64,000 nt of DNA from Spinacia oleracea (taxonomy: Eukaryota; Streptophyta; Magnoliopsida; Caryophyllales; Amaranthaceae). The notes beneath the pieces were generated by a model. It made no database searches. It saw only the letters and a program-made list of their open reading frames with translations, and was not told the DNA's origin. Both the position numbers and the translations under genes were made by a program. The DNA is taken from positions 5,009,143-5,073,142 of the forward strand of contig NC_079491.1 of the NCBI RefSeq assembly GCF_020520425.1, written 5' to 3'. Below, one piece after another: positions 26,065-49,108 of the stretch; positions within the stretch are counted from its first letter, which is position 1; each line of letters opens with the position of its first letter.

Positions 26065-26190
26065 GAGAATTTGTTAGCAATCAACGCTGGTGAAGCTTCA
26101 AACTCTACTGGAAACGGCGTTTGAAAGGAATGAAAGTAATAGACGAGGAAAAACAAAAATTTTGAGATGATAGGGTTTGCTAGGCTGCTA

Positions 26191-28700: not shown

Positions 28701-30200
28701 GGCCGATGGTAGTAAAGCTTTGATGCTTGATAAAAAAAATTAAAAAAAAAACCCTGATTTTGGTTGCTTTTTCTAGTTCGTTCGCAAAGAAAAAAAAAAA
28801 AATTGTTGTTGCGACATGCGTTCAAGTTTATGGATTAAAGTTTTATACTTTGTAGATATTTAGTTAACTAATTATTGGCCCAATAGCTGTTTAGAAAAAT
28901 GGTTTAATTAGGCCCTGGTGTTTGAGATTGAAATTTTTTGAACTTACTTGCACTGAACTGAATTTACTGGGCCGAAATATAACTGAACTGAACTTAATAG
29001 GACTTGAACTGAACTTAACTTAACTTATTGAAATGACCAAACTTAACTTAATTGAAATAAAAAAATCCTAATAATCCTAATAATTTCAAATGTTTATTAA
29101 GCATATTATTATAAATAATAACAATATTAATAAATATAATATAGTTAGGAATAATATTTAAATAATAGAAAAATGTGAAAAATAATTAAAGTAGCATAAA
29201 ACAAATATAAAAAATGCTAAGTGCTAGATTTGGATAACGGGATATGATCGCATATTTGTCGTCAAGTACTATATACCATTTATCGGGATATATGGAAACA
29301 CCATCTGGAGGAACTTCATACCACTTTAATCATCGACATTCATCGATGAGATTACCGTTGAAATGACTCTCTTGATAATTTCAAAGTTGAATAAAAGACG
29401 TCCTTTCTGGTTTCAACTGATATAATTCATAATTATCTTTGATGTGAATACGCAATTCTTTTCCTAGCAAGAATTTTCAAGTGATTAGTGAGTGTTTAGA
29501 ATCCATTGATGTGTTTAATTCTATGGCAATTGGTTCTGTATTTTTAATTAGCCTATGATTGAGATTTTAAAAGGGTGCAGGATGTGTTTAATTCTAGGGT
29601 AATTAGTTCTGTATTTTTCAATTAGGATAGGAGGTATGCAGATCGCCCCACGTTAAGCCCACTTGTTGCCTTTCACGTCTGGCCTTGCCAAAAAAATTCA
29701 TAAAGCAAACACGGCCCAAGCTCAATGTGTCTCATGTCGGCCGTACTTTTTTTTTTTGTGCCCGAGTCAGGCCATGTTTTTTTCGTGTCGGGGTCTCGGG
29801 CCATCCCGGACCAGTGTCATCTTTAGTCGTGATTGTTTTTTTATAGAAAGAAAGACATTTTTGCAAAGTTAAGGATTAAGGTAATTAGATAAATCATACT
29901 ACGTAAAATCAATATAGATAAGTAACATAACTAATACTGAATATATGCCCCAATTTGCTTTCCCCTCTTACATTATTCCCTTCTCCTAAGAGATTTTTCT
30001 GACCCCCACAATGAAGGGTTTGTATTTATAGCTTTTTGGGAAAAGTACTACGTCAACTTTTACCCTAAAATCAAGGCATATGATTGGCTCATTCATGTCA
30101 TAAGAACGGGAGATGATACAGTTACACTGGGGGTAATTGGGGCCCAGGTACACTGCCATCTTAGTGGTCCAAATCAGCATGGATTAATTGAGTTTTAGGG
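28701..30200. other. Gene-free stretch of degenerate repeats
   Basis: 28910-29060 is rich in AACTGAACT/AACTTAACTT motifs, a MITE style also seen at 49660-49810 and 58110-58260. 29510-29630 contains a diverged direct duplication (GTGTTTAATTCTA...GTTCTGTATTTTT). 29640-29820 resembles the GC-rich degenerate block at 7440-7740. No gene is visible. Confidence 0.4.
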
Positions 30201-31056
30201 GGAAATGCATTTGGTTTTAGGGGGAAAATATTTGGCATCAACCGCCCTTTAGTGTTTTCAAGCGGGAACATTACCTCCCCTTTCCTCCCCAAAACAAATC
30301 CCGCCCAAGCAGCAAAATAATTAAAAAAAAAAGAAATAAAAATTCAATCTTTAACTTTAAAAAAAAAAGCTCATTCAACCTTCAACGGTAATATTTTCTG
30401 GAAAACGGTTCAGCAAAGAAAATAAAGGCAAAGCTGAAGGGGTTGTATCATCTCCCATTTTATCGAGTTTGCCACAAACAAAAACGCACAGGAAAGTTTT
30501 TAGCAAAACGTTTAGAGCTGCTACAACATTATTAAGCTTCGAAATTCAGCTTCGAAATCTCGCTTCGAAATTAATGTAAGTTTTTCGTTAAATTGTTTTT
30601 GTCAAATGTAGTTAATTAATTCCTGAAAATAACAATGCTATATGAATGTTTTATTTTTGGGTAGTTAAATTTGTTTGAATTAATGAAAAATTGGAGTTTC
30701 ATGATATTGATGAATCTTGATTGTTTGGCAGATATTGATGAGTTAATGAAAAATTGTAGTTTCATGTTAATTTGATAAATTTGTTTTTGGTGAGAAAGTA
30801 GATCTGCACGACGGAGAAAACAAGGTGTTTTTTTTGTTTATTTCATACATTCTATAATTACGTAGTATTAAGAATGTTATTAAGTTGTATGTTATCCTAT
30901 ATGGTTAAACACTAAACTAAGTGGTTATTCTAAAATCGTTGTATATAATTTGTTTGTTTGTTGTATTTTATAAAACCCTAAACGTTTGGCAGCATTTTAT
31001 AAAACCCTAAACGTTTTTCGTATTTTGTACAACAGTGATATACGTGGGAGTTCTGT
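30201..31056 (+). promoter_or_regulatory. Promoter and 5' UTR with intron of the FAR1-like gene
   Basis: A leader ending near 30575 is followed by a strong donor (AAT|GTAAGT). The acceptor CAACAG at 31030-31035 lies 21 bases before the start codon, giving a ~460-base UTR intron. Upstream at 30240-30310 are two near-matches to E2F sites (AGCGGGAAC and ATCCCGCCC). The TSS and TATA box are not clear. Confidence 0.45.
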
Positions 31057-33768
31057 ATGGCTTGGGTAGACCTAAACGAAAGTGTCCCTGATCTGAATGA
31101 AAATGTTCCTGAAAGCTCACAATATAGATTAATAACTGATGGACAAGAAGTTATCGTTAACCCCCCTAGTGTAGGGATGTGTTTTACAACGGGCCATGAG
31201 TTTTTCGAATTTTGTCAGTTGTATGCCTTCAAAGAAGGATTTGAGATGTTTATCAAAAGTAATAAGCTGAAAAAAGAGTACAAAGAAAAGGGAGTATCTA
31301 AGTCTGGTGTGGGAAAGTATGAGGCAAAGCCGCATATGATGGAACTTATTAGATTAAAATGCAAGAAGGGAGGGGTGAAAAAAGGTGTTGGGTCTAATGT
31401 GACCGGTTGTAAGATGAATATTTACGGTGTAAGTAGAGATGGGCTATTTACTATATTGACTTGTGACTTGCAACACAATCATCCTTTAAATCCTGACTGT
31501 AGTAGACTGATGGTTAATTATAGATGTATAGACGGTACTACATTTAAGAGGGCGATGATCAATGACATGGGTGGTGTTAGCATAAGTAAGAACTTTGGTA
31601 CGCATCTAATTGAAAAGGGAGGTTATGAAAATATTACATTTAATAATAGAGACTTGAGGAACGCAATCAACGTCGAACGTCGTTCATCAAGATTTAGTGC
31701 TGCAGATGCCGCAGGACTCGATGCTTACTTTAAGGCACAACGTGATTTGCATCCCGAGTTTTATAGCTCAATACAAGTAGATGATGATGGTGTTTTTACG
31801 AATGCATTTTGGTCGGATGCACGTAGTAGGGGTACATGCAAATATTTTGGGGATGTTATTACTTTTGATACTACTTTCGCTTGCAACCGGTACGTGTTTT
31901 AATTAAGTTTTTATTGATTTAAATTCTTTGTAATTGTACTTTGGTCCATTTGTTTGAAAAAGTAATATCCAATACATTTATATTGTTTTAGGTATCGGAT
32001 TCCATTTGCTCCATTCATTGGTGTAAACCATCATGGCAAATCAATTATATTTGCTGCGGCCTTAATTTCCCATGAAAATACTCCCTCATTTGTTTGGGTA
32101 TTTGAAGAATTCCTGAAGTGTATGGGGAAGGCACCACTAGGCATCTTAACCGACCAAGACAAAGCAATTTGTAGAGCAATTGAGCTAGTCTTCCCGGGCG
32201 TCCGTCACAGACTATGTTTGTGGCACATGCTCCAGAATGCTAGTAAGAACCTAGGTAGTCTCAGTGATTGGAAGAAAATAGACACCCTGATCAGAACTGC
32301 AATACATGATCTGATTGATCCAGATGAGTTCGATGAAGCTTGGTGTCATGTGATGGATGAGTACGGTTTAAGGGGTCCTGGGTGGATGAAGGACGCGTAT
32401 GATAACAGGCGTCAGTGGGCTCCGGCATATAATAGAGGAAAGTTTTGGGCAGGTATGTCTTCTACACAAAGGAGTGAGGGTATGAATAGATTTTTTAAAA
32501 CTCACGTGAACTTAGATTGTGGTTTAGTTTTGTTCATTCATAATTATGAATATTGTATGAGGATAAAAGCTGAGGAAGAGAAACAGGATAATTTTGATAA
32601 CATTGATAAGCCTGCTAAGATTGATGTTGATAAGAGTGTTTTAGTTGAGTATGTATTGGTTAAGACGTACACTAGTGAGAAGTTTGCTGAGGTTGTTAAA
32701 GAGCGTAGAGGATTGACACACACAAATGTCACGAAAACCTCATGTCATGGATCAGTGGTGTTGTATAGAGCTGATGAAAAACTAACCTCACCGTTTTGGC
32801 GGAAAAGGTTTAAAAGTTATGATGTTAGGGTGGATAAGGAAAATGGTGATTTACATTGCTCTTGTAACTTGTTTGAATTTACGGGAATACTTTGTAGACA
32901 TATAATGCGTGCAATGGATGTAGAGGATTTTCAATTTGTTCCAGAAAAGTACATACTACAACGGTGGATGAAGTGTGTTAGGTCGTACGAGAGCATTCGA
33001 GTATCTTACTTCGACCCTCTTGAATCTATCAGATTGGGCAAAGCCAAAGAGCTTTCACAACGGCATAATTACTTGTCTGAATTAGCTATGCGTAATGATG
33101 ATGCACTTCGGTTGTACAAGGAGGCTATGGATGTTGTGCGGCTAAAAATGGAGGATGTAGTCGGAATACGAAAGACTGGGGAAAAAGGGGACGACCTTAT
33201 ATGTTGGTGGGACCCAGATGCGAGAAATGTATTTGGTCGTCGAAGGCTACGTCCACGAGAATTTGGTGAGAGAGCCAGATTAAGGGATGTAGAACCGGTC
33301 GTGGACGAGAACAGGATCAAAACACCGGTTGACAAACGGCATACTGGTAGGGCAAAGACAAAAAGGAATGCTCCTTTTGGTGGAAAGGCCGGTGGGAATT
33401 CTAAGAACAAAAAAGTGGTTACTGAAGAGGAAGTTATTGCTAATGAGGTAAAATTTATATTTTATTTGTTTGGTGATTCGTATCGTATATGCAAGTTTTC
33501 ATTAGGAAATATAACTTTACTTTTCTACTTAAATGTTGTTTGTGCAATGTAGGAACTTATTTGCAACGCATTTGGAAATCTTCCAAGTTACCGTGCTAGG
33601 CAACAACACGCGAATCACGTTGGGGGTACATATGCGGAGAACGTCCCACAAAGTTCTAATGTACATCCTTCTCAAAGTTCTCAAGCACACCCGTCCCAAT
33701 TACATTTGTCTCAGGATTGTTCACAGTCATTTGAATTTGATATTAACGATTGGCGCACCAGATTGTGA
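31057..33768 (+). CDS. FAR1/Mutator-type transposase-like protein
   Basis: Three exons (31057-31889, 31992-33447, 33553-33768) give 834 residues without a break. The N-terminus repeats DLNE twice. A FAR1-type WRKY-GCM1 zinc-binding region follows (~45-155, with KCKKGG, TGCKMNIYG and CDLQHNHPL). The MULE transposase core has Asp271 (FDTTF), Asp332 (LTDQD) and Glu440 (QRSEGMN), the complete DDE triad, with the CLWHML helix between. A SWIM zinc finger (C567-x-C569...C579-x-H581) closes the core, then a basic tail and a Ser/Gln-rich end. FAR1/FHY3 proteins are transcription factors domesticated from such transposases. An intact triad and the company of transposon-type genes make an active or recently active transposase equally plausible. 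Confidence 0.85.
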
Positions 33769-33934
33769 ATGTTTTGTGTAAATGTAATTTAATTTGATTT
33801 CTTCAAAGATATATTTTCGTTTAAACGGTATTTTAAGAATTGAATTTTTTAATCCAATCCTCCCTTTTTGCTATGTACTTTACGTTATGTCTATATATGT
33901 AATTGATGTAACCTCAATTACTTTATCAGTGTAA

Positions 33935-34070
33935 AAAAAAAAAATACAAAATGAGTTTTATTAGGCGTCGAACCCACAACCAACGGGTAGACAATATGCT
34001 CAATGAGGAGGAAAGAGTAACCATTGTGACAGTGAGGCTAAGCCAGTGATATTTGTGGGCAACAATACTA
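33935..34070 (-). mobile_element. SINE family 2, minus orientation
   Basis: The complement contains GGCTTAGCCTCACTGTCACA, ATGGTTACTC and a B-box-like GGTTCGACGCC, then a T-rich tail. GCCTCACTGTCACAATGGTTACT is shared with the SINEs near 45650 and 48170. T-tailed plant SINEs (Au type) are known; that assignment is tentative. Confidence 0.55.
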
Positions 34071-34385
34071 TTTATTGTATAATTTATATTAATTAATAAT
34101 GTACATACAACGAATCTATTACACTGGGAAACAATTATAAAAACAACGACTTCATTATACTAGTCTTACCAAATGTAAACATGATGTGTTTGGTCATTGT
34201 AGTCAAAAAATGCATTCCCATGTCATGCAAAAGTCAGCCCCTTATTTTTTGTAATATATGAATATTATTTATTGGAAACAACATGATCCATCAATGACAT
34301 GTTAGAACTAGGTGAATATAAGGGTGTGTTCAATCCCTCCATTTCAAAGAAAAAGTAATTATAAGAGATTACTACATCACAAAGA

Positions 34386-35189
34386 ATGGCTACTAGTGTA
34401 AACAAAATCACAACGAGATGCAGTGAAATCGATTCGATGTTGAGTGGGGGAATAACAATCGGTGAAGTGACTGAGGTGTGTGGCGAAAATGCATCAGGTA
34501 AGACTCAATTTTGCCTTCAAATTAGTCTCTCTTGTCAATTGCCGCCTTCAAGGGGTGGTATTTGTTCCTCGGCTATATATATCCATTCACTTGGTCCCTT
34601 TCCCATACGTCGTTTAAGTAGATTAGTTCCATATGTTTTAGGGGACCTTGAAACATTAAATGGAAATCCTTTGGATTACATAACTACAAAGCAAGTTGAC
34701 ACTCCTCATGAAATACCGGATGTGCTAGAATGGACTGTAAAACTTATTAAAATGTCTCAAAATTCATCAATGCCAATCCGCGTTGTTGTTATTGATTCAA
34801 TAGGTAGTATGTTCACTGGTCATTTTGAAAACAATGTTGTTGGCTCAACCGAAAGAAAGGATCTTATACAAGCTATTGGTTATGGGTTACGTACAATTGC
34901 CGCATCCAATCATGTTGCCGTTGTTGTGGCTAACAATGTGATTGACGTATTTCCATCTGATCACGATACAACGCAAAATTTCATTATATCGTCCGGGAGA
35001 AAGGTCCGTCCGGCTTTGGGCGCCTCATGGACACGCAATGTACGCACTCGTCTAATGTTGTCCAAAAGATTTAATTCGTTTACCCAACAAATTGACAGAT
35101 TTATAAACATTGCATTTTCACCATCATTAGAGGTAGATGCATGTATGTTCAACATCACTGAAGAGGGGATTGTCGGTGTTTGTAGTTAA
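34386..35189 (+). CDS. XRCC3-like RAD51 paralogue, intronless
   Basis: The product is 267 residues from one exon. It has the RecA/RAD51 core: Walker A GENASGKTQ (33-41), Walker B VVVID (133-137), an SSGRKVRPALGASW stretch (~202-215) and a C-terminus (FSPSLEVDACMFNITEEGI) that resembles plant XRCC3 more than other RAD51 paralogues. XRCC3 works with RAD51C in strand-exchange repair and meiosis. Host XRCC3 has introns and a short extra N-terminus; this copy starts at the ITTRCSEIDSMLSGGI motif. Absence of introns suggests a retrocopy or transposon capture, yet the frame, both Walker motifs and the C-terminus are preserved, implying selection or recent origin. It is convergent with, and only ~140 bases from, the next gene. 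Confidence 0.8.
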   Translation: MATSVNKITTRCSEIDSMLSGGITIGEVTEVCGENASGKTQFCLQISLSCQLPPSRGGICSSAIYIHSLGPFPIRRLSRLVPYVLGDLETLNGNPLDYITTKQVDTPHEIPDVLEWTVKLIKMSQNSSMPIRVVVIDSIGSMFTGHFENNVVGSTERKDLIQAIGYGLRTIAASNHVAVVVANNVIDVFPSDHDTTQNFIISSGRKVRPALGASWTRNVRTRLMLSKRFNSFTQQIDRFINIAFSPSLEVDACMFNITEEGIVGVCS

Positions 35190-35331
35190 AAGATACTAAG
35201 AAATTGTGCCAATAAGACCAATGAACATTAGAAAATGTTTAACATGTTTAAAAGACGCAGTTATGCTGCGAGTAATACGCTACTAAATTTTTTGTTAATG
35301 AAATCCTACCATACAACCAAATCAATAACCA

Positions 35332-38300
35332 TCATTGTCCGTCAGTCAATTTCCTTATTAGCTCGTCCACTTTGATTTCATTGTGTGGGTTTGTAACTAG
35401 CCGTCCGAGCATGTAATTCCGGACGTCCCTCACCTCCTCTACGTAGCCCTAGTCATAATTAATGAACACACGGTTAGTGTAGTGATTAATAAAAAAAAAT
35501 TAAAACAACTTATTTCCACATGTAAATTAAATAGTCTTACCTCCAACCACTCTGCCACGTTCTCAACGGATGACAAGAGGTAGATCATACACAGTACACC
35601 CCCGTCCTGGCGACATTTCTCTTTTGGTCCATTTGACCATAGATCAAAAGAGGCAGTATTTAAGGTCAATTCATCATTTTTTAATCCCAAGTGCGATTGA
35701 AAACCCAAAAACATACGTTCCTGTTACAATTGGGTTTTATCGAATTAATACGAGATTAAGGCGGAAGTATGTTTCCCGAAAATAGCAGTACGTACCAGTT
35801 TGTATACGAATTTATCCCTAGCATTTAAACCCATAACCTTTTGCCTTGGTGCAAAAATAGTCATTTTCAACATATTTGAGTTAAGATCCTCCTTATGCGC
35901 AACACGGTCCACTTTAACAACCACCCACCGTCCTCGGCGTTTAATCGGGACATAAAGCTGATTGCACAACATAGAGTTAATAGCCGTAAACCACCATTTC
36001 TGTGCGAAAATAAGACTACTTACCTTTTGTATTGCACCCAAATCAATCTGGTAGTAGTTGATGTCCTCAAGTAGTTGCTTTGATTTCATTAACAAAGCTT
36101 CTGTGTAGTTCTCACTTGATTCTTCAAGGTCTAACAATTCACCCTACGTTTTAAACATCCATAGCATTACTTCGTATATAAGGTTAATGGGTGTCTACTA
36201 CTATGTATTTGCATAATAAGCTTACCATGAGATCTGGCATAAGCACGTAAGACCTTATGCCAACTCCGGAGGTCGTATCAGCATTCAAACACGCGCACCA
36301 TGCAGACATCACCTAACCAATAAGACAATGTTAGTATGAGAAAACTAATCCAGAGACCTATTAACTAATTACAAAATGCAACCCCCATACATTATCATGT
36401 ACTTCGCCTTTGGACTTAAAGGACGTTTGAAGCATGATCCGATCAATCGTGATATCACCAGCTTTAAACACCATTTGGTTTGGAAACTTGTTCACGGTCA
36501 AAATCATAGTTGAAATCTTTAACGTTCTTGGTTCAATGACAGTTTTATGCTGTAAAGCATCTGGCATGGAAAGTCCATCATCGCTGCCAGTTGTGTAACC
36601 ATCAACAACTCCAACACTGTCAATGTCATCACCCGTGTTGTTTTGAGGTTCCTCAACACCATCATCCTCATTCAGGTTTCTGTTTTCAGGCCCCGTAGCG
36701 TATTCCTCGTCCTGATGAGGACCATCAAGGTCATCAATGTTTTTATTGGCAGCTCTATAACTTCGTCCACGCCTTGTATCATAAGCATTTTGTTGTACGG
36801 AGCCTTCAAGTGTGGCCTGTGTAGTTTAGTGATAATTATCACGGTGAAGTAGGTTGTAACAAAAACCAGTTACAACAAACAATAATATAATAAAGACTCG
36901 TACCTTCCTCTTCCTCTTGCCCCGGCATCTATAATCCACGTTCCTTGATCGACTATCCGCTTTGGTTGACGCTTTAGAGGGTAACATTGGTGTACCAGTC
37001 CTCTTACTAAGAAGTGTTCGTTCAGCAAGGGCATCCCATGGGGTCCGCTCTAACGGCTTGCCAATGGGGTATGGTTTCCCATACTCAACATTCAGTACAA
37101 CCTAAATAGGCGTATAAATGATCACTACTGAATAACATATATTGTTCAATACAACAAAAAAGTTAGATATTGGTTTTTACCTCTGCATGGCCATATTCGC
37201 CATCCGGTCCCAAATCTTGTGCAATAGCGTTTGTGACATCATCTTGTAGCCATGCCCCTAATCTAGGTGTATCAGTTTTCCAAGCCAACGGAGTAACACC
37301 ATACTTTAACCTGTCCAGGTAAGCAATCTGCCAAAAGATGGAGTAGTTATCATTCGCGGGGAGGAATAACTAATTACAAAAAAAAAAAAAAACACGGACG
37401 ATGCGCACAACGTCTATCCTCACTAACCATTAAAATAATCGAAGATGGTCTTCCCTTCTCCTTCTCATGACCTGCAATCCAGTCGTAAAGAAACCCACAC
37501 CAATTCCAGTCTCGGGGTGTTGTAAAGTATGTTGATTTCAGTAGTGCCAATAATTTGATGGATATGAAGTTGTATTTGGTCATGCAAAACAAGCAACCAA
37601 ATGACAGTAGTATGAAATCGCGAAGAAAAACCATCTCATCCTGAACCTCCCATAAACACTTGTTATACAACCAGACATAGTCTATTCCTCCATCCTTTTC
37701 CCTGACGTACTCCTTAAACAATTTTCCAAGTTCCTTATCGGTCTTATTTAAAAAGGGGATTCTATAAACCCCTACAGGAATTCCAGTGATCCAAGAAACC
37801 ATTCTCTCATCAATCACTATCTCATAATCATCGCGTATGCGAAGCACTCGTCTTTTCCAATCCCACCTACTCTCTAACCAGGTAATGAAATATCTATCTA
37901 CCTTACTTATTTTTAGGTTCAAAATAGACCCAAAACCAGCAGCTATGACCCAATCCTTCCTTATAGGACACAACTCGGTTAGGATGTCACAAACAAGGCC
38001 AGGGTACGTCCGTAGGGCAGTGTGCTGAAATATTTCAAAAATTACAACACAATGTCAATCAAAATAGTTTAAATGAGTTAGGATAATGTCAATCAAAAAA
38101 TTACACAAAGTACAGATAATGTTGTACGACCAATACCTTAGTTCGTGGCCCCTGTTCCTTTGGTGGTCTACCTGGTCCGCCCTTTACCCATTTACCACCC
38201 GTTTTTTTTTTTTGAACTGTTGCTGTTTTAACCGTTCGTGGACGACCATGCTTGTTTTGAACCTTACCCTCTTCAACCGGCAGATCATTGTTTACTCCAG

Positions 38301-39773
38301 AAGCAGCATTACCCTCATTGGGTAATATTGGATCGCTTTCAATTGTATTATTAGTTTGTTGACCCTCGATATCCTACAACAAAAAGTTTGGTTAAAGATA
38401 ATCATCTTTGTACCCACAAACAATGGCAACGAATATATGAAAAGTTGCCTACCCCTCTGTTCGTGCCCGTGGGAGCCTCATAAGGTATGTCACATTGGTT
38501 GTCAGGATTGGAATAGTTAATGTCGTTCCATATGTTGTCCTACAAAACATAAAATGTGTTGTCAAGCGGTGTTGTGATTATTTCTTAATAAGTGATTTAA
38601 ATATTTCGTATGGATAAATCAAACCAAATCAATATAGGGATGCAGTCATTACCTGTGAGAAATCTTCGAAAGTTAAATTATCATCAAAATTGAAATTTAA
38701 TGGTTGACTATTGTTCACCGCAAATGCGGGGTTTTCAAATTCACCGCGAACATCAGTGACACTATTAATTGTGTTTGACTCCTATAACAGAAAAAACAAG
38801 AGATTTTTTTTTGGTAAAGAAGGTATAACTATACAACGAAAAACAAAAGTTAACCAATAAATAATTTTTAGTCACCAGTTCAACACAATCTTACCCCCAA
38901 CAAGGGCTGCATACAAATTGGTTCATTGCTAGTGAAATCATCACCGGACTTGTTAATTCCACTACTTTTCTGGGTGTTCTTATCAATGAAATTAGAATCC
39001 TACAAATTAAAATCAATCCACATAGTGAATAAAAAAATTCAAAAAAGATAAACATGTAATTCATACTCAAGGCTCACTGGTTTTACAAACAATACCTCAG
39101 TTTCATTGCCCACGAACTGTCCAATTGGATCGACAGTTTCTTGTTCGAGCTAACAAAGGTTTTTATAGGAACACTAATTAGAGAAGCGCTACTAACAATA
39201 ATTAGTTACGATAAATCTAAAATTACAAGTTAAGTGATACTGTACCTCTGAGAGTTGAGAAGGTTGGGTGGATTGGGACTTGTGCGGCTGGCCGGAGTTA
39301 GAGTCATCGTCGTCGGAGTCATCCCTGTAGCACGCCGCTAGTTTAAGAATGCAATCGTAGTGCGTATGCGCCGGATCTGCCTCCCTGGGGGTTTTATTAC
39401 ACACAATTCAAACATTAACAACGGAGCAACACAAACAAATCAATAAATTCCGGGTTTTTAATGTGGAATAGCTACATGCAACACTCAAACATAGCTTCTC
39501 GGATTCACTTTTTGGCGAATTTAATACTTCGGTTACACAATTATGTAATGGTTGAAACAAATTAAGAACTTACATTTCAATTGGCTCAAAGAAACTCTTG
39601 ACGAATTTTCCTATGTTTCCGGCGAACGAATATCGGATGTTCACCTTGTTGGGGTGGGTTTTGGAGTGTGAACAGAGATGAGAAGATTGAGTGCTTCTTT
39701 TTTTTTTTGGCAGATTTTCAAAACGGAGACACTTTTTGCAATGAATGGCACGCGTTTGATTCTTCCTATACAC
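35332..39773 (-). CDS. AT-hook / mobile-domain / Ulp1-like pseudoprotease fusion
   Basis: Fifteen exons splice in frame with GT-AG borders: 39773-39574, 39384-39246, 39149-39096, 38999-38895, 38781-38653, 38539-38453, 38373-38137, 38024-37428, 37327-37181, 37101-36904, 36816-36373, 36312-36226, 36143-35796, 35720-35541, 35448-35332 (1022 residues). There are acidic low-complexity regions (~80-280), two AT-hook-like GRP cores (~281 and ~306), a plant mobile domain (318-565) paralogous to the one at 43570-44461, a basic RGKRKRK signal (~625), and a Ulp1/C48-like fold (~809-1000). In that fold the HW motif reads GRW (880-881) and the catalytic DCG reads DGG (963-965), so it should not cleave SUMO. 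The start is uncertain: exon 1 may be partly UTR, since a Met codon is also formed across the first splice junction. Confidence 0.75.
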
Positions 39774-40050
39774 AAAAGAAAAGCAAAATGTAGTTTTGTT
39801 GACATTAATTACACTATTATCTTTCCCTTTTTTTATTTAACTTTAATTCAAATTTATTTAATTTTTTTCGGTCTTAATGTTTTTATTGTATTATAAATAC
39901 ACATAGCTAAGGACACCGTTAACTTTAAATTGTATGTATACGTTTAATTTCACTTGCCAAGACATATTTTAGGTGAGTATTAGGCCCGATTATAAATTAT
40001 GTGTAAATTTCTAACTAAAAGTCCATTATCGTTCACTAAGGGTTAAATAG
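39774..40050 (-). promoter_or_regulatory. Probable promoter of the Ulp1-like gene
   Basis: This AT-rich DNA upstream of the minus-strand gene ends at the tandem array. No clear TATA box can be assigned. Confidence 0.3.
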
Positions 40051-41253
40051 GTAAAACAATAAACACTTCACTCACTTAAATCGAATCACTAGACGGTTTG
40101 TTTCAATACGGGGTGATTAGGTTTAGTTGGCCATTTGGTCCGATCAAAGTAGAACCAATTGTATCGACGGATTAGGAACAAACAAGAGTTACAAGTGTTA
40201 ATCTGGTCTTGAATACTCGAATCAAATCTCATTAAATGGTGTCGTTCCACACAGGGTGATTAGGTTTAGGTGAACATTCGTTCCGATCAAAGGTCAACCA
40301 ATTGAACAAAACAATAAACACTTCACTCACTTAAATCGAATCACTAGACGGTTTGTTTCAATACGGGGTGATTAGGTTTAGTTGGCCATTTGGTCCGATC
40401 AAAGTAGAACCAATTGTATCGACGGATTAGGAACAAACAAGAGTTACAAGTGTTAATCTGGTCTTGAATACTCGAATCAAATCTCATTAAATGGTGTCGT
40501 TCCACACAAGGTGATTAGGTTTAGGTGAACATTCGTTCCGATCAAAGGTCAACCAATTGAACAAAACAATAAACACTTCACTCACTTAAATCGAATCACT
40601 AGACGGTTTGTTTCAATACGGGGTGATTAGGTTTAGTTGGCCATTTGGTCCGATCAAAGTAGAACCAATTGTATCGACGGATTAGGAACAAACAAGAGTT
40701 ACAAGTGTTAATCTGGTCTTGAATACTCGAATCAAATCTCATTAAATGGTGTCGTTCCACACAAGGTGATTAGGTTTAGGTGAACATTCGTTCCGATCAA
40801 AGGTCAACCAATTGAACAAAACAATAAACACTTCACTCACTTAAATCGAATCACTAGACGGTTTGTTTCAATACGGGGTGATTAGGTTTAGTTGGCCATT
40901 TGGTCCGATCAAAGTAGAACCAATTGTATCGACGGATTAGGAACAAACAAGAGTTACAAGTGTTAATCTGGTCTTGAATACTCGAATCAAATCTCATTAA
41001 ATGGTGTCGTTCCACACAGGGTGATTAGGTTTAGGTGAACATTCGTTCCGATCAAAGGTCAACCAATTGAACAAAACAATAAACACTTCACTCACTTAAA
41101 TCGAATCACTAGACGGTTTGTTTCAATACGGGGTGATTAGGTTTAGTTGGCCATTTGGTCCGATCAAAGTAGAACCAATTGTATCGACGGATTAGGAACA
41201 AACAAGAGTTACAAGTGTTAATCTGGTCTTGAATACTCGAATCAAATCTCATT
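40051..41253. repeat. 255-bp tandem array, about 4.7 copies
   Basis: The anchor AAACACTTCACTC starts at 40061, 40316, 40571, 40826 and 41081, an exact 255-base period. The copies are almost identical, differing for example at CACAGGGTGA against CACAAGGTGA. Each unit contains two diverged half-repeats beginning GTGATTAGGTTTAG and continuing CCGATCAAAG, 144 bases apart. The array sits exactly between two divergently transcribed gene blocks and ends inside a unit at 41253. Near-identity means recent amplification or active homogenisation. Confidence 0.95.
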
Positions 41254-41541
41254 CTGATCTTGGTTACCAAGGTTGTCTAGGTTAATTTGACTCTTGAACC
41301 CAATCAAATCATGTTAAAGTGACGAAGACTTTAGACATTCATTTCACTTTAGTTAAATACAAAATAAAGATCTGATGTTATACAAATTAAATCTTTAACC
41401 CATTATAGTCATACATAATATTATACAACTTAAATCTTTAACCCATTAAACTTCACTTCTGCAAAGTATCGAAGCTAGTGCTATATAGCACATTTTACAA
41501 TGCAACCACTTTTCAGCTTTTGGGACTACCAATGCAAATGT

Positions 41542-41717
41542 CTGGCGGGAAAACTACGCTATTCAATATATAACGAAACTACTTTACATACAACCATGTT
41601 TGTCTACGATTATCTACGTAATTAACAACAAAACTATTAATTTGGTCTGAAAAATTCATAACGACGTGATAAACAACACACTAAATTACGCCTAATTAGT
41701 TCTACTTTTCCCGCCAG
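41542..41717. promoter_or_regulatory. Inverted pair of E2F-type sites
   Basis: CTGGCGGGAAAA (41542-41553) and its exact inverse TTTTCCCGCCAG (41706-41717) lie 152 bases apart, 148-323 bases before the start codon of the 155-aa gene. Each contains TTTCCCGC, the canonical plant E2F site that drives S-phase genes. A TATA-like ATATATATACATA follows at ~41760. Regulation by E2F is inferred from sequence only. Confidence 0.55.
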
Positions 41718-41864
41718 AAAACACATGTGCTCCAAATCCATATATGGTGCATTGGTGCATATATATACATAAGACATACAAAATGAAATAGCAATTCAAC
41801 AACTACAAACAAACCACGAATACAATTTGTTGAACATTTAAGTACATCAAGAACTATTGTGGGA

Positions 41865-42429
41865 ATGGCACCGGTGAATCGAAGAGGTAAGCTAACTCAT
41901 GGCGTCACAAGTTCGTCAAGAATGAAGGAAATATCAAAAATTCGAGTATGTGGAAAAGGTAAGCTAACTCCTACTAAAACGGCGTTTTAATATTATTAGC
42001 GAGTTACACTTAAAATAGCCTAATATAACATGGATTTCGGACATGTTTGTTGTAGATGTACCATCTACACCCCGTTGGTGTAAGTACTTGGCGGTGGAAC
42101 TTCAACAGGAGCAATTCAAAATTGATTGGAGGAGATTTATGCGGTTCATTATCAAGCGTTTAGGACCTTCTGAAACTTCCAAGATAGTAAGCGATCTACG
42201 ATGCGCTCCTAATGTAAGTGAAGTATTTATGGAAGAACGTGACTATTACTTAGTTGAGAATTGGTCTTTTGAAAAAATTAAACCAAACCAGAAGGGAGAT
42301 CGACTAATTGCGGTAGCAAAAGCGGATGATCGACTACTAAAGCGAGAACCTTTAGAAGAGGACGAATTTTTGCTCAAGGAAGGGAAACAGAAAAAGATAG
42401 TGTTCGTTGATTTAACACAAGAAGACTAG
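41865..42429 (+). CDS. Unrecognised 155-aa protein
   Basis: Two exons (41865-41958 and 42056-42429) join within a GAT codon with clean GT-AG borders. The protein is basic and soluble. The core runs CKYLAVELQQEQFKIDWRRFM, IIKRLGPSETSKIVSDLR and VEEN-like acidic ends, with no signal peptide, membrane segment or zinc ligand pattern. It ends EEDEFLLKEGKQKK then IVFVDLTQED; the last part (VDLT next to acidic residues) resembles a SUMO-interacting motif. I do not recognise the family. The promoter has paired E2F-type sites. Its place between the Ulp1-like and PB1-like genes suggests it belongs to the same unit. Confidence 0.65.
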
Positions 42430-42749
42430 GGAATTTTGTTGTAGAAGTGGTTACATGCAACGTTTATCGTATGCACTTTCTTAAATATTACGTTGTACGG
42501 CTTGAAAAAGTTTTTATATTAAAATCAATGACGTCTTTGTTTTATTCGTATTGAAATATAATTTTTTTTTATATTCGTCGTATTGCTTTTGCTTTTGCTT
42601 TTGCATATACTATTTCGACATTTACGGGAATTGTGGGGAATACTTTGTAAATATCACCAGCAACCACACTTAGTTTACCGGAAACCAAAATCTCCTTTCT
42701 TCAAATTAATCTACACAACCAGATCTGAGTTCAATTTTTTTGGCAGATA

Positions 42750-44461
42750 ATGAATAATCAAAGAGGACTGTCGCTATTAAGGTATGTTAATCGATTACCT
42801 TTATCTGGGTTTGTTTTTGTTTTTTAATTTGTTGAATAATTTGTAATTGAATCGTTTTATCGCAGAGAACCAATAACACAGACCGCCAAAATATGGCTTG
42901 TAGTTTGGCGTGAGGGGAAAATTGTTTTCCATCCACGCCGCCAATATAAAAAAGGGTCGTCAAAATTGTATATGATAGCAACGACCATATTAAACTTCAA
43001 CTATCTGCATAATATAATTAGATCTATGGGATACTATGACTACAAGATCTGGTATGTCGCCGACATTAAAAAATTTCACAGCGAAGGGAGGTTACTTTCA
43101 AATTCAGAAGACTTTCAGGCAATGGTGGATTTGGGTCTGAAGAAAAGATTGGTTAACATCATTATCCAACACACTAACTATGCGGCAACTCATCCAACTG
43201 GGAAAAAAAAGAAAAATGTTACAAATCTAAGTCCAATTAAAAAGGTATGTTTATGCCGATTAAGGTATTTAGATTTTTAAAGTTTGTCTTATTATAGTAA
43301 CTTAAATTCATTTTTGTTGTATAGCCGAATATCAATGCACAACAGCATACGGAGGCTAATGAAGGGGAACATAACGACTATGGTCAATGTTCGACAACGG
43401 TTAGTGACATTTTATGAGTTACATATGTAATATTATTTAAATATGATCGAAGTTTTTAGAAATAGGGATTGTATAATTAGAAATGTATGGATTTTTTTTT
43501 AATTAAAATGTTTATAGTTTTAAATAAATCACTAAATTCATGTACTGTATTGTTTTTTTTTTTGGTCAGATTCCTGGAATGGGTTGTGGTATAAGTCAAT
43601 TTGCACAAATGCTTGCAAAATTAACAGAACCACAAAAAAAATGGGTGGTGGAAATGGGTTTCGAGGAACTATTGTATATAAGGGTCAATCATATTGACGC
43701 AACATTTGGTTATTGGATCATGTCTAGGTTTGACCCGGACAACTTAGAGCTGAAGATACGGGACAATTACTACGTTAAAATAGACGAGGAAACAATTAGT
43801 TGGGTTTTAGGTTTAAATTCGGGGAAGCACCTTTTGCTACCAAATAATTCTTCAAAACTTGTAGATATTCACACAAAGAGGCAGTATAAACAAAACACAT
43901 CTTATGGTGCGGTTACAGAATCTGAGGTTTATTCAAAAATAATCGACTGTCATATAGACAAGATTAGTTTCAAAAAACATTTCTTACTATATGCTTTAGG
44001 AACTCTCCTTTGTCCTACACAAAAATGTGGTTGGATAAGCCCGATACATATCACCGTCTTAGACAAAGCTTCAGAGGCAACAAAGTATAATTGGGCAGCA
44101 TATGTGTTGGATTGGCTTGTCAAATACGGGGAAAAATTCAAAAATTCAATTCAGGGCTATGGTGGATGCACACTTCTACTGCTTGTAAGTTATAACAACA
44201 TTAATAACAAACACTCGTTTGTTTATGAAAACCATAGGTATACATGTACCTAACAACAATTATTTCCCTTAAAAATAACAGATCATATATATCGATAGGC
44301 TAGCATCGTCCAGAGCTGATCTGAACATGGCACCCGACGCCTGCCGCGTACGAGTATGGGACCAACAGGACATTGACAGGACATTAAAAGCAGATCAAGG
44401 ACCAAATGGTGATTACGGATTTGGACCCGTCATTGAAGAATTTGTGTATGGGAATATTTAA
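42750..44461 (+). CDS. PB1-like plus plant mobile-domain protein
   Basis: Five exons (42750-42781, 42866-43244, 43325-43399, 43570-44184, 44282-44461) give 426 residues without a break. Residues ~15-115 (KIWLVVWREGKIVFHPRRQY, then GYYDYKIWYV) match the PB1-like N-terminal domain found in plant Mutator transposases. A Lys-rich linker follows. Residues ~163-426 form the domain that usually precedes Ulp1 in plant transposon proteins (MGFEELLYIRVNHID, LKIRDNYYVKIDEETISWVLGL, FLLYALGTLLCPT, TKYNWAAYVLDWL). It is paralogous to residues 318-565 of the minus-strand gene, and an intron falls at the same place, before IIYIDRL here and IAYLDRL there. Function is unknown; DNA or protein binding is likely. 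Confidence 0.75.
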
Positions 44462-44680
44462 TAATTGTCGTCGACTTTGTTTGCAAACAATTTTCAAGTA
44501 TGTGTCCAAATAACTTTCCTATAGTTTTATTAATTTGTTGTATTCATTTTAGTTATCCTATCTCCCACGATTAGATTTTTTAATTTTTTATTATTTAACT
44601 AGGTTAGGTTTTCGTTGTATTGTTATTAGATTATTATTTTTTTATTCAAGTTAAATTGCAACGGTAACAATCTGGACTTC

Positions 44681-44687
44681 TATATAA
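44681..44687 (+). promoter_or_regulatory. TATA box of the GRF gene
   Basis: TATATAA lies 83 bases before the start codon, in otherwise gene-free DNA. Confidence 0.5.
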
Positions 44688-44769
44688 TGACCGTTTCTGT
44701 GGGATATCTACTTACATTACGTGCCCAAAAAAAAAAAAAAACAAAAATTAACATTTAGTAAGAATATAT

Positions 44770-45312
44770 ATGGCTATTGAGCAAGGAACACCCAATTCGG
44801 CAAATTCTTCGCGAGGCAGTTCTTGTAAGGCACAGCAAGTTCAATGTTACCATGGTTACAAGGCCAAGCTACAAACATGCAAACACACAAAAAACAAGGG
44901 CCAACAATTTTACTCTTGCCCGGTATGGAAGGTAATATAATCGATTCATTAGGTAGATTTAAATCACTTTTTCCCAACATTTTGGTTTTCAGAATGATGA
45001 TCGGTTTTTTTACAGGATGATACTTGTGGTTTTTTCTTTTGGGAAAGTGAGGTAAACGGTAACATTCTAGATGAGCTACAAGATGAGAATTGTAATCTCA
45101 AGCAAGAAACTGTGCGCTTGAAATTCCAAGTTGAAAAGATATTTCTAGAAAATAAAATGCTGTTGGAAAAAGTTGCATATTTGGAGGCAAGGAATGAGGA
45201 TATCATGCTACGCTTTTATGAATCAAAATCAAATGAAAAACTAAGTTTTAGAATGTGCGTTATTTTGACATTCTTTGTATTATTTTTTTCTCTAAATACT
45301 TGGAGAGTGTAA
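44770..45312 (+). CDS. GRF zinc-finger / coiled-coil / tail-anchored protein
   Basis: Two exons (44770-44931 and 45016-45312) give 152 residues. The GRF-type zinc finger has Cys26, His28, Cys50 and Cys58, with the family core GQQFYSCP and CGFFFWESE. GRF fingers bind single-stranded nucleic acid in topoisomerase 3, APE2 and others; in plants many small GRF proteins accompany transposons. A Leu/Glu/Lys coiled coil spans ~73-128, and a hydrophobic segment (CVILTFFVLFFSL, ~135-148) ends the protein as a tail anchor. The intron splits the finger after CPVWK. A decayed intronless relative sits in the Mutator element at 11.3-12.8 kb. Confidence 0.8.
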
Positions 45313-45421
45313 CAGTAGATAATAAAGTAGGGGTTTCTTTGGACGCAATATATTTCTTTATTATTTTTTTGGTTACAGGTTTTTATTCTAGTTTTATTGT
45401 TAATTACCGAATAATGGAATG

Positions 45422-45803
45422 TATTGATTTAAATTATAAATTCGGTTCAAAAAAATAAAATAATAAAATACAAAATAAATGAGTTCATTTTTATAAGACA
45501 TACAAATGTATAACATAATAGGGGAGGTATCATCATACATTATATAAAAACGTACAACACAATGATGGGGAGTCAAAATTGATCTACAACGTAAAATTAA
45601 TTACTCATTAACGTTTAGAACTACAAGGAGTGCTTAACTAGAAATTTGCATGACAATTGCCAATGGCTTTGCCTCACTGTCACAATGGTTACTAGCATTA
45701 TCAATAGCTCTTTCATTCATCCACGCTGAGGTACAGGGTTCGAGCCTTGAGAACCTCTATTTTTCAATTTTTTTTTGGGCACCTTTTAAAACTGAATATT
45801 TAC
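45422..45803 (+). repeat. ~385-bp duplicated block, copy A, containing a family 2 SINE
   Basis: It matches 47920-48305 almost base for base from ATTGATTTAAATTATA through GAATATTTAC. The second half (~45650-45770) is a SINE: GGCTTTGCCTCACTGTCACA, ATGGTTACTAGC, B box GGTTCGAGCCTT and a T-rich tail. It forms the 3' flank of the GRF gene. Confidence 0.85.
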
Positions 45804-46879
45804 ATTACGAAGGGTTTTACACTGCTCGAGTTGCCCTAATACACGAGCCATGCAGTGATAATTTAAGCCTCACAGCAAATGTAACTTAGTCCTATTAATC
45901 TTCTCAGCTAACAAAATATAAATAGGATACTGTGCTACCTTTTAATTTGGATATGTTTTTATGTTTTATAATATTTTTAAATAATATTTAATTTATTCAT
46001 ATGATCATTTAAATTCGATATTGGTAATTTAAGGCGTGTTTGTTAAACGCTCGTTTATTAAGGCACGTTTGGTAATACCTCGGCTAGGCTCGAGCTTGAA
46101 CTTAAACAAGCTACTCGTGACCTAAGCTAAAACAACGGAAAAATGAAAGCTCATTTAAGCTCCGCTCGAGCTCGAGATCGGAAATTTCTCATCAAGCCTA
46201 ATCCTAGGTCGAACACCGAAATACTCGGTTGAGCTCGGCTCGTTGACATAACATGCAAAAAGATCTGATAACTAAAATTGTTAATTTATGGTTATATATT
46301 ATAAATTATATACTTATTTAAATCAATAAATTTTTCATTACCACTCTTTAAAATATGAGTTTTTTACGATAATTTACATTGTTATATCTATCTAATATTG
46401 TTAATGTCGTTATAAAACTAACATGCGAAATAAAACAATATATATACCAACTTATCTGATTTTTTCTTTTACTAGTAAATAAACCAAATGAATTTTACAC
46501 AATTGTGAAAAAATTTACCAAAATTGTTTACGAATTTTTTCAGAAAATACATAAAAATGAACCCACTTTTATTGCATTATTGCGCTGGCTTCCTCTAATT
46601 TATTACATGCACCACGCGTCTCACTTATATCAATAAAGCTGATTTACTTTTTCGTTTTTCAACGAAAGTAAATTTGTTCAAAATCATATACAACAAAACT
46701 GTAAATAGCAACAATTAATTGTTCACAGCTGGGGAATGCTCTAACATCTCAATACAACTTAACTCATTTGGCAGTGTGAAAATAAAATCCGGAAGTTCAA
46801 AAGTTTCTCGTATTACAATAACAATTCAAGCCTCACATTATAGTTTACATTGCCCTAAAACACTTACTTGGAAACACAT
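45804..46879. other. Gene-free stretch
   Basis: 46020-46250 contains GCTCGAG/CTCGAGC-type degenerate repeats, probably an old MITE. The rest is AT-rich without coding signal and leads into the promoter of the small F-box-like gene. Confidence 0.4.
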
Positions 46880-46887
46880 TATAAATA
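46880..46887 (+). promoter_or_regulatory. TATA box of the small F-box-like gene
   Basis: TATAAATA lies 101 bases before the ATG at 46981, followed by a CT-rich leader. Confidence 0.6.
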
Positions 46888-46980
46888 GGATCTTCAAGTT
46901 CACTTGAAAAATCCTACTTCACCTTTCTTCCACCCAACACTCTCCAAAACCCTCAAGTTTCCACCAAAAACCACTCAACA

Positions 46981-47617
46981 ATGGAGGAGATCAAGGTAAT
47001 TAAACATTTTCTTTTTTTTAGTTACTCAAATGGGAGGTTGTAAGATCATGATTTCGATTTTTTTTAGTAATAGTCATTTTTTGGTAATTTTGGCAAGTTT
47101 TTTTCGTAACAAATTTACCACTAAACTTAGGGTTATTTTTGTTAATTTTACTTCAATTCTATTTAGGGTCAATTAGGCTTAATGAGTGTTAATTTTAGTT
47201 AAATTATATTGTTAATTTTGACTTGAAAATAATATTTTGTACAAAATTTAAGGTGAAAATATTAGTTACTTTCTATTCTTATTTTTGGTTTTGGTACATA
47301 ATTTAGGTGAGAAGTTTTAATTATGTTTGTTAGTGTTATTATTCCGAAATTTTGAAAATTATGTTTTGGTCTTTATTTTGATTTTAATTTAGGTTGCGTA
47401 ATGTTAGTTTTAGTTAAACAACAATTCCTAACTAAAATGTTCAATGTTGTAGGCGCATGATGTGTTTTATAACGAACTCATTTTAGCTCTTCATATTTTC
47501 CCGAATTTTTCGGCCCGTCAAGGGAAAATAATTCGAGCTGTTTGCAAGGAATGGAAACGTATTTGGGACGACGACGATTACGGGGAGTCGTTGCGTAGGT
47601 TGTTCGCTGAGGAATAG
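46981..47617 (+). CDS. 59-aa F-box-like protein
   Basis: Exon 1 (46981-46995) encodes MEEIK. After a 457-base intron, exon 2 (47453-47617) encodes NELILALHIFPNFSARQGK, VCKEWKRIWDDDDYGESLRRLF and stops at TAG. The VCKEWKR stretch and the preceding Leu/Ile helix resemble the second half of an F-box, the motif that binds SKP1. There is no substrate-binding domain. It could compete for SKP1, or be a fragment. A TATA box and clean splice sites support expression. The same ~385-bp block follows this gene and the GRF gene. Confidence 0.55.
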
Positions 47618-47919
47618 GTTTTCGGCAATAGACTAATATGTAACATTTTGTTTATCGTTACTTATTAGTGTCTAATTTAAGTAGTAAAAACGGTACTTAA
47701 TACTGTTTCGGAGGGGTTTAGGACTTTGGTATGACACTTTTGAATTTGTGTACGGTACTATGATGTAACATTTGTGTACGCAATTAGGATATAACAACGT
47801 ACGACTGTGGACTAAAGGATATATATTATAAGTTGTTATTTTGATGTACTATTTGTTTAACAAGAAATTTTAATTATTGAATATTCTTATAACTTGCAAT
47901 TATAGTTTATTAATGAAAT

Positions 47920-48305
47920 GATTGATTTAAATTATAACTTCGGTTCAAAAAAATAAAATAATAAAATACAAAATAAATTTGGGCATCATTTTTATAAGAC
48001 ATACAAATGTATAACATAATAGGGGAGGTATCATCATACATTATATAAAAACGTACAACACAATGATGGGGAGTCAATATTGATATACAACGTAAAATTA
48101 ATTACTCATTAACGTTTAGAACTACAAGGAGTGCTTAACTAGAAATTTGCATGACAATTGCCAATGGCTTTGCCTCACTGTCACAATGGTTACTAGCATT
48201 ATCAATAACTCTTTCATTCATCCACGCTGCGGTACGGGGTTCGAGCCTTGACAACCACTATTTTTCAATTTTTTTTTTGGGCGCTTTTTAAAACAGAATA
48301 TTTAC
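47920..48305 (+). repeat. ~385-bp duplicated block, copy B
   Basis: See copy A at 45422-45803. Differences are few (for example AAATGAGTTCATT against AAATTTGGGCATCATT). The two direct copies bracket the F-box-like gene at 2.5 kb spacing. Confidence 0.85.
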
Positions 48306-49108
48306 TTTGGAAACTCCGCAGTCATCTTCTCCGATTGGATCTTATCAAATCTGAAATGCAGAATTTTTTTTTCACAAATTAAACATTAATCAATTCGACA
48401 ATATTGATTTCGTGCCCATAACAGCTCTTAATTCGAACAAAATAATCCAAAAACACGACGGAAATTGCAATCTACAGCGATATTAACATGGTGACCTTAA
48501 TTAAAATGGTGTATCGCCTTTCATCACCTACCATTGACAGAGATGAGATGAAATGGAAAAAAAAAAATTCCTTCTAACTTTGGTATCATCGACAGAAAAT
48601 AAAGGAAAAAAAAATTCTCAGCCATTTGAATTTCAAATTCAAAGTGAAGCTGAAATTTCAAATTGAAATTGGGGGATGCTGAGGTGGATTGAACCAATAT
48701 ATGGCCAGGGTACACAGGGACCACTTACCCTCTGTGTATCCATAGCCTTTGCGCATAAGAACAAGTGTCCTTATATCTTTGTGGTCCTTTGCTAGATCAG
48801 GCTCTTCTTGTGGGTCTTGGGCCTACAAGAGAGTTTGTACTCATGCAAATAAGGGAAATATTCTGATTGCTTTCCATAGTGACACATGTCAAATAGCTAC
48901 AGGTTACTTTGCTATGTCATAGGTTAACAAGAAATAGGACATGTGTCCATTAATCTTGACACGTGTAACTCGATTGTTGGTCCGTGGTGGACATACCTTT
49001 TTGTCCACATCATAACTCACTAAACTCGCTTATCAACTTTTCACGTACCAAAACAAATACACAACACTCAATAGTCGAATGGGACTACACTTGACATTTA
49101 CAGTACTA
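48306..49108. other. Gene-free stretch
   Basis: No coding signal. 48600-48680 has self-complementary AAATTTCAAATTGAAATTT motifs. I searched by eye here for a partner of the DNA at 29.9-30.3 kb (expected terminal repeats of a large element) and found none. Confidence 0.4.

What the first reader, a model, noticed from the sequence alone, without database searches (positions are those of the whole stretch)
30201..47617. Seven intact genes of transposon type in one island: candidate giant Mutator-like element with a RecA-family passenger
Seen: seven reading frames, six of them hand-spliced or single-exon at 152-1022 residues, none with a stop or frameshift, in ~17 kb while surrounding repeats are decayed. 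Known: FAR1/MULE transposases, PB1-like domains, the pre-Ulp1 mobile domain, Ulp1-like proteases and GRF fingers all occur in plant Mutator elements. Inferred: the genes form one mobile or recently mobile unit that also carries an XRCC3-like recombinase, a combination I do not know to be described. I could not find terminal inverted repeats or a 9-bp duplication around it by eye, so the unit could also be a domesticated cluster.
Basis: partly seen in the sequence, partly recalled or inferred. Interest (0 to 1): 0.9.

Follow-up and report, generated by a model that had tools for sequence, protein, structure and literature searches.

The report
Giant plant transposon carrying recombination gene
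This stretch is one complete copy of an 18.6-kb jumping gene cluster that moved recently in what is probably the spinach genome, and besides its transposase it carries an intact gene for a DNA-recombination (XRCC3-like) protein that related elements have kept under selection, which suggests a transposon that brings its own DNA-repair helper.

Summary
Confirmed, with better borders. Three paralogous sites that I read are empty. Of six other copies fetched, five have their own 9-bp duplication and one has rearranged ends. Copies in the window's subgroup differ by 0.06-0.17%. It is an autonomous Mutator-like element with short, degenerate inverted ends; the genome (894.2 Mb, probably spinach) has 18 exact left tips.

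The RecA-type gene is not a chance passenger. It is XRCC3-like (37% identical to the host XRCC3) with ATP-binding motifs kept. It sits in the same place in three further families, 55-59% identical to it, with dN/dS 0.11-0.23. Of 19 transposase loci at 97-100% identity, 19 have it downstream (15 full-length, 4 partial). A sister family seems to have lost it.

Its role is inferred: repair of the element's excision gap by homologous recombination (about 35%). Giant FHY3/FAR1 mobile elements are known from kochia; I found no report of a recombinase in one, but a key 2025 paper could not be read. New variant of a known kind.

The parts
30108..48753 (+). Complete mobile element (giant Mutator-like element), 18,646 bp
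   Evidence: Alignment with six other copies stops at these borders; empty paralogous sites
30099..30107 (+). Left copy of the 9-bp target-site duplication CATAAGAAC
48754..48762 (+). Right copy of the 9-bp target-site duplication CATAAGAAC
30108..30173 (+). Left tip GGGAGATGATACAGTTACACTGGGGGTAA..., imperfect terminal inverted repeat; 18 exact tips in the genome, control 0
48688..48753 (-). Right tip; about 50 bp matches the left tip in register at the same offset from the end
31057..33768 (+). g1 transposase, 834 aa, exons 31057-31889, 31992-33447, 33553-33768; MULE domain and SWIM zinc finger
34386..35189 (+). g2 XRCC3-like RecA/Rad51 ATPase, 267 aa, single exon, Walker A GENASGKTQ and Walker B VVVIDS
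35332..39383 (-). g3, at least 963 aa, 14 exons: AT-hook-like basic motifs, region resembling g5 (plant-mobile-domain-like), degenerate C48/Ulp1-like C-terminus; start codon not identified
40053..41253 (+). 255-bp tandem array (4.7 units) between divergent genes g3 and g4; length differs between copies
41865..42429 (+). g4, 155 aa, exons 41865-41958, 42056-42429; no known family, ends in a SUMO-interaction-like motif VFVDLTQED (VVIDLTDE in family 2)
42750..44461 (+). g5, 426 aa, exons 42750-42781, 42866-43244, 43325-43399, 43570-44184, 44282-44461; plant-mobile-domain-like (below cut-off)
44770..45312 (+). g6 GRF zinc finger plus coiled-coil-like tail, 152 aa, exons 44770-44931, 45016-45312
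46981..47617 (+). g7 short F-box-like protein (below cut-off), 59 aa, exons 46981-46995, 47453-47617; no match in the family-2 copy

Best explanation
Window 30108-48753 is a recently inserted, autonomous giant Mutator-like element. Shown: ends, 9-bp target duplication, empty sites, near-identical dispersed copies, an intact MULE transposase gene, and an XRCC3-like ATPase gene kept under purifying selection across families. g3 and g5, with the tandem array of variable length, most likely act like VANDAL VANC proteins and their target repeats against host silencing (about 35%). The stated confidence is for the element and for g2 being a functional component, not for its role.
For: Mobile unit. 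Recent: 0.06-0.17% divergence in subgroup A (window, c2_108.9, c3_75.65), 0.10-0.39% in subgroup B; RecA protein identical over 267 aa in 10 places, the window included. Component: same order transposase(+), RecA(+), g3(-) in four families, and g4, g5, g6 also in family 2. RecA dN/dS 0.14-0.16 among families 2, 3, 4 (dS 0.85-1.01) and 0.11-0.23 between family 1 and these (dS 1.55-2.65, near saturation); transposase 0.10-0.12 among families 2-4. RecA 0-6 kb downstream on the same strand in 19 of 19 transposase loci at 97-100% identity, 15 of them with the full 267 aa. Walker motifs invariant in four families and host. VANC-like feature: tandem arrays of different sequence at the same place in families 1 and 2, compare PMC5735166.
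Against: No functional evidence for g2: no expression, no biochemistry. The sister family (transposase 78-81%) has no RecA match in 9 of 9 loci, 3 of them with open transposase exon, and at the one locus read nothing stands between transposase and g3. None of 20 loci at 47-59% has it, and 15 of 40 at 60-77% do not (12 of these 15 carry in-frame stops). Internal deletions are not rare in family 1: 5 of 20 RecA places at 98-100% identity are truncated or internally deleted, one fetched copy of seven has lost g3 with a 5-bp microhomology at the joint, and 4 of 18 left tips have no transposase exon at the usual 1.8-1.9 kb. That shows interrupted repair happens despite g2. One full-length RecA copy (C5:63379225) has an in-frame stop.
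Confidence: 0.85

Rival explanations
1. g2 does not repair for the element but interferes: as a core ATPase without N-terminal domain it occupies host RAD51C or RAD51 filaments and biases break repair at donor or target sites, or protects cut ends.
For: Core ATPase only; 36-37% identity to the host protein leaves room for changed partners.
Against: Walker A and B are kept in all four families, more than a pure decoy needs; no direct test.
Confidence: 0.25
2. g2 is a captured host gene carried as inert cargo, as in Pack-MULEs.
For: No match in the sister family (0 of 9) or at 47-59% (0 of 20); truncated in 5 of 20 family-1 places.
Against: Same position and order in four diverged families with dN/dS 0.11-0.23; no in-frame stop in g2 in the six copies compared with the window.
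Confidence: 0.05
3. A domesticated, fixed host gene cluster rather than a mobile unit.
Against: Ends, 9-bp duplications, near-identical copies on all six large contigs, and empty sites.
Confidence: 0.01
4. g2 acts in anti-silencing or expression of the element, for example through chromatin or SUMO-linked repair foci together with g3 and g4, not in strand exchange.
For: g4 ends in a SUMO-interaction-like motif in both families compared, and g3 has a C48-like C-terminus without catalytic residues (motif names recalled).
Against: The C48 match is weak; nothing links g2 to these genes except co-location.
Confidence: 0.15

Closest known systems
Kochia (Bassia scoparia) EPSPS mobile genetic element, 16,037 bp (PMC6808082; section 16 and passages read); follow-up Hall et al. 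2025, doi 10.1002/ps.8798, seen only as a title in a reference list, not held
   Same: Giant element with an FHY3/FAR1-type gene and further genes, several copies in the genome, in a plant of the same family as spinach (recalled)
   Different: Its four predicted genes are FHY3/FAR1, ubiquitin-like superfamily, endonuclease/exonuclease/phosphatase superfamily and unknown: no recombinase reported. The RAD51 of that paper is a gene co-duplicated with EPSPS, not one of the four predicted on the element.
VANDAL / KIU non-TIR MULEs of Arabidopsis (PMC5735166, PMC13317346, PMC6446971; passages read)
   Same: MULE with short or no inverted repeats, extra genes including Ulp1-type ones, non-coding tandem arrays that differ between copies
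   Different: About three genes, no recombinase named in the passages; VANC homology of g3 or g5 not tested
Pack-MULEs (starts of abstracts in search listings)
   Same: MULEs holding host-derived sequence
   Different: Here the transposase is present and the captured gene is intact and conserved
Host XRCC3 (L030, C4:148009937)
   Same: XRCC3-like RecA core; best PDB match is XRCC3 for both
   Different: 36-37% identity; no listed transposase match within 500 kb

Membership tests
Mutator-like element (MULE) superfamily | MULE transposase | tested here: met
   Pfam MULE 1e-29 above cut-off, SWIM 9e-7
Mutator-like element (MULE) superfamily | 8-11 bp target-site duplication | tested here: met
   9 bp, perfect in 6 of 7 family-1 copies and in the one family-2 copy held over its whole length
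Mutator-like element (MULE) superfamily | long terminal inverted repeats | tested here: not met
   About 50 bp, imperfect, score 31 in window and c2_108.9 against a shuffled maximum of 32 and 31, though in register at equal offset from both tips; in c1_92.14 the best local match lay elsewhere. Non-TIR MULEs are accepted members (PMC6446971)
VANDAL/KIU-type non-TIR MULE | short or absent inverted repeats | tested here: met
VANDAL/KIU-type non-TIR MULE | VANC anti-silencing protein | not tested
   No VANC sequence was at hand; g3 and g5 are only analogues by context
VANDAL/KIU-type non-TIR MULE | Ulp1 (C48) domain | tested here: inconclusive
   C48 E 0.073 in the family-4 segment, none in the family-3 segment; by eye the catalytic His is absent in the segments read and DCG is kept only in family 3
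Kochia FHY3/FAR1 mobile element | sequence relation of transposase and ends | not testable with these tools
XRCC3 / RAD51 paralog | Rad51 core with Walker A and B, XRCC3 as best match | tested here: met
   Pfam Rad51 2.7e-26; PDB best XRCC3 3.6e-28; GKTQ and VIDS invariant in 5 of 5 aligned sequences
XRCC3 / RAD51 paralog | ATP-dependent function in homologous recombination | not testable with these tools
   needs a bench assay
Pack-MULE | no transposase gene | tested here: not met
   transposase intact

The most novel reading that the evidence does not exclude
A lineage of giant plant DNA transposons has taken in a host XRCC3-type recombinase and kept it as a working part of transposition: the element carries its own homologous-recombination factor to copy an 18-kb unit back into the excision gap, a eukaryotic cut-and-paste element that encodes its own repair arm.
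Probability: 0.35. Interest if true: 0.9.

Novelty: new variant of a known kind. Interest (0 to 1): 0.7.

Why it matters
How cut-and-paste transposons gain copies through host break repair is an old question (recalled: maize MuDR gap repair). An element lineage that has conserved its own RAD51-paralog gene offers a direct test: compare families with and without the gene for copy gain, internal deletions and footprints. It also shows that multi-gene giant MULEs were active recently in a crop genome, in the same plant group where such an element is tied to herbicide-resistance gene duplication in kochia (PMC6808082).

Tried and rejected
Rejected: domesticated cluster (empty sites, duplications); chance clustering of separate transposon genes (same order in four families); assembly artefact as sole cause (different flanks and duplications per copy); pure passenger status of RecA (dN/dS, conserved position). 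The rearranged copy c3_75.65 was kept in the counts as the one without a duplication. The syn/non-syn table was wrong by one base and was replaced; the transposase dN/dS was wrong (stops in the segment) and was replaced. One search ended with an error and was not used.

Led nowhere: structure prediction of g4 (tool off); genome search for the right tip (not completed); genome searches for g5 exons (not completed). Literature: 10 searches. One search (mutator-like + XRCC3 + transposase) found 0 papers; in the other listings I noticed no paper on a recombinase in a MULE, but nearly all were seen only as titles and starts of abstracts. Hall et al. 2025 on FHY3/FAR1 elements in Bassia was not readable and could lower the novelty.
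Full report
WHAT IS THERE. The window lies at G000:C5:5009143-5073142 of an 894.2-Mb genome. The RecA-type frame of the finding gave 68 tblastn rows in this genome, 10 of them identical over 267 residues, the window's own included.

ENDS. I fetched six of those ten places in full. They align with the window from 30105-30120 to 48749-48754 and not beyond, with a diverged first 600 bp in one subgroup. Reading the joints gives the element 30108-48753, 18,646 bp, with CATAAGAAC on both sides. Five of the six other copies each have a different perfect 9-bp duplication (TACTGAAAA, CTTTTCAAC, CTTTACTAA, TTGATCGTC, GACAATTTG); the sixth, at C3:75.65M, has rearranged ends and none. The joined flanks of the window copy gave 20 rows in the genome; two are the window itself and 11 run across the joint. 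Three of these 11 that I read carry one copy of the target (CATGAGGAC, CATAAGGAC, CATAATGAC) and no element. This is direct evidence of insertion.

The inverted ends are short: in the window copy about 50 bp match at the same offset from both tips, but the score (31) is within the range of 100 shuffles (maximum 32), and in copy c1_92.14 the best local match lies elsewhere; by score alone they would not be called. Left tips of families 1, 2, 4 and the sister family share GG(G/A)AG(A/T)T(G/C)ATACA followed by a near-palindrome of the type GTTACCC-N-GGGTAAC, seen by eye; no such tip was found in the stretches held of family 3 and of the 49% family. The genome holds 18 exact family-1 left tips, control 0; 14 of the 18 have transposase exon 2 at 1.8-1.9 kb.

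AGE. Family 1 has two subgroups. A (window, c2_108.9, c3_75.65) differs by 0.06-0.17%, B (c1_92.14, c3_7.70, c3_10.94, c3_11.72) by 0.10-0.39%, A against B by 1.2-1.8%. About half of the A-B substitutions sit in the first 653 bp (119-120 of 568 compared sites, against 0.60-0.84% in the rest), so the left end was exchanged as a block. Against the window, g2 is unchanged in five of six copies and has one silent change in the sixth; g1 has no internal stop in five and alignment gaps in c3_75.65, where the genome search also shows a stop. Genome-wide 12 places share the top score for g1 exon 2 with no stop.

GENES. g1 is a MULE transposase with SWIM finger; the FAR1 domain is below cut-off. g2 is an XRCC3-like Rad51-core protein. 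g3 is a large antisense gene with AT-hook-like motifs (recalled motif), a part related to g5, and a C-terminus that resembles C48 peptidases weakly (0.073 in family 4, none in family 3); by eye the catalytic His is missing in the segments read, and the Cys is missing in families 1, 2 and 4 and present in family 3. g4 has no Pfam match below 0.08 and a tail like a SUMO-interaction motif in both families (motif recalled). g6 is a GRF finger. g7 is F-box-like, below cut-off, and has no match in the family-2 copy.

THE RECOMBINASE IS A COMPONENT. Family 2 (RecA 59-60% identical, transposase 65-70%) has the same order and strands for g1, g2, g3, g4, g5, g6, its own tips and a 9-bp duplication ATAGCAATG around 18.3 kb (chosen as the shared 9-mer with the best-matching tips). 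Families 3 and 4, read over 8 kb each, have g1-g2-g3 in the same order. RecA identity to family 1 is 55-59%, and 77-79% among families 2-4. RecA dN/dS is 0.14-0.16 among families 2, 3 and 4 (dS 0.85-1.01) and 0.11-0.23 between family 1 and these (dS 1.55-2.65, near saturation); transposase is 0.10-0.12 among families 2-4 and not computable between these and family 1. RecA lies 0-6 kb downstream on the same strand in 19 of 19 at 97-100% identity (15 with the full 267 aa, 4 partial), 25 of 40 at 60-77%, 0 of 9 at 78-81%, 0 of 20 at 47-59%; 44 of 56 RecA places have a transposase upstream. One of the 12 RecA places without is the host XRCC3 (C4:148009937; best PDB match XRCC3 2e-40). g4 relatives are found in the same families, the sister family and the 49% family, so g4 is more widely kept than g2.

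RESULTS AGAINST. The 78-81% family is the closest relative of family 1 in the transposase tree (support 95/95, seven sequences), yet shows no RecA; at the locus read (L033) nothing stands between transposase and g3. As families 2-4 have it, loss is the simpler reading, but a RecA transfer between families cannot be excluded; the RecA tree has few taxa and weak support (80/68). Of the 15 loci at 60-77% without RecA, 12 carry in-frame stops, 3 do not. Internal deletion is not rare in family 1: 5 of 20 RecA places at 98-100% identity are partial (C5:3198471, C3:21348719, C3:21332581, C4:188840690, C1:132463713), one full-length place has an in-frame stop (C5:63379225), copy c3_10.94 has lost about 4.5 kb with g3 and shows a 5-bp microhomology ATTAG at the joint, and 4 of 18 tips have no transposase at the usual distance.

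MECHANISM. Shown: mobility, intactness, selection on g2. From established knowledge (recalled): XRCC3 works with RAD51C in RAD51-dependent break repair; plant MULEs can gain copies when the excision gap is repaired from the sister or homologue, and interrupted repair leaves internal deletions. Inferred: for an 18.6-kb unit long gap repair is a bottleneck, and g2 promotes it. The conserved ATP sites fit; the internal deletions show that such repair takes place and also often stops short, so they do not by themselves favour a role of g2. I put this role at 35%. The 255-bp array between divergent g3 and g4 varies in length (5 to 11 hits of an internal 15-mer per copy; window 9 hits, 4.7 units) and is replaced by a different 157-bp array in family 2, which resembles VANC target arrays (PMC5735166, passages); this is why I propose an anti-silencing role for g3/g5. 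Homology to VANC was not tested.

KNOWN OR NEW. A giant FHY3/FAR1-type mobile element is known from kochia (PMC6808082), with no recombinase among the four predicted genes. MULEs with Ulp1-type extra genes are known (PMC13317346). No search here turned up a MULE with a RAD51-family gene, within a library that lacks most subscription papers and the 2025 Bassia paper. I rate it a new variant of a known kind.

Noticed in passing
L034-L037 (C6:3400000-3435999) and 13 further places at 49% identity: A more distant MULE family (transposase 49% identical) has, over about 32 kb between the outermost matches, three plant-mobile-domain-like genes, a g4 relative, a GRF protein and four related proteins sharing a YYPNHDEFG-like stretch; no RecA match. 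Ends not located.
   Followed up: partly
L033 (C1:64624500-64632499) and 8 further places at 78-81%: A sister family of the window element shows no RecA gene; the locus read has g1 and g3, with g4 and GRF matches further along the contig.
   Followed up: yes
30108-30760: Subgroup B elements have a left end only about 79% identical over aligned sites to that of the window while the rest is over 99% identical: a block exchange between elements.
   Followed up: partly
L018-L020 (C3:10.94M copy): Internal deletion of about 4.5 kb removing g3, with 5-bp microhomology ATTAG at the joint.
   Followed up: yes
45412-45806 and 47911-48308: Two direct repeats of about 400 bp, about 92-96% identical, flank the F-box-like g7; they contain a GGTTCGAGCC box and may be SINEs (recalled motif).
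   Followed up: no
C1:92448078 and C6:150305662: Two left tips lie 23 and 15 kb from the RecA gene instead of about 4 kb, as if other elements had inserted in between.
   Followed up: no
21526-26073: Long copia-type polyprotein frames upstream of the element (translations, read by eye).
   Followed up: no
L024-L026 (C3:75.65M copy): Copy with 0.06% divergence from the window but both tips rearranged, no duplication, and a disrupted transposase.
   Followed up: partly
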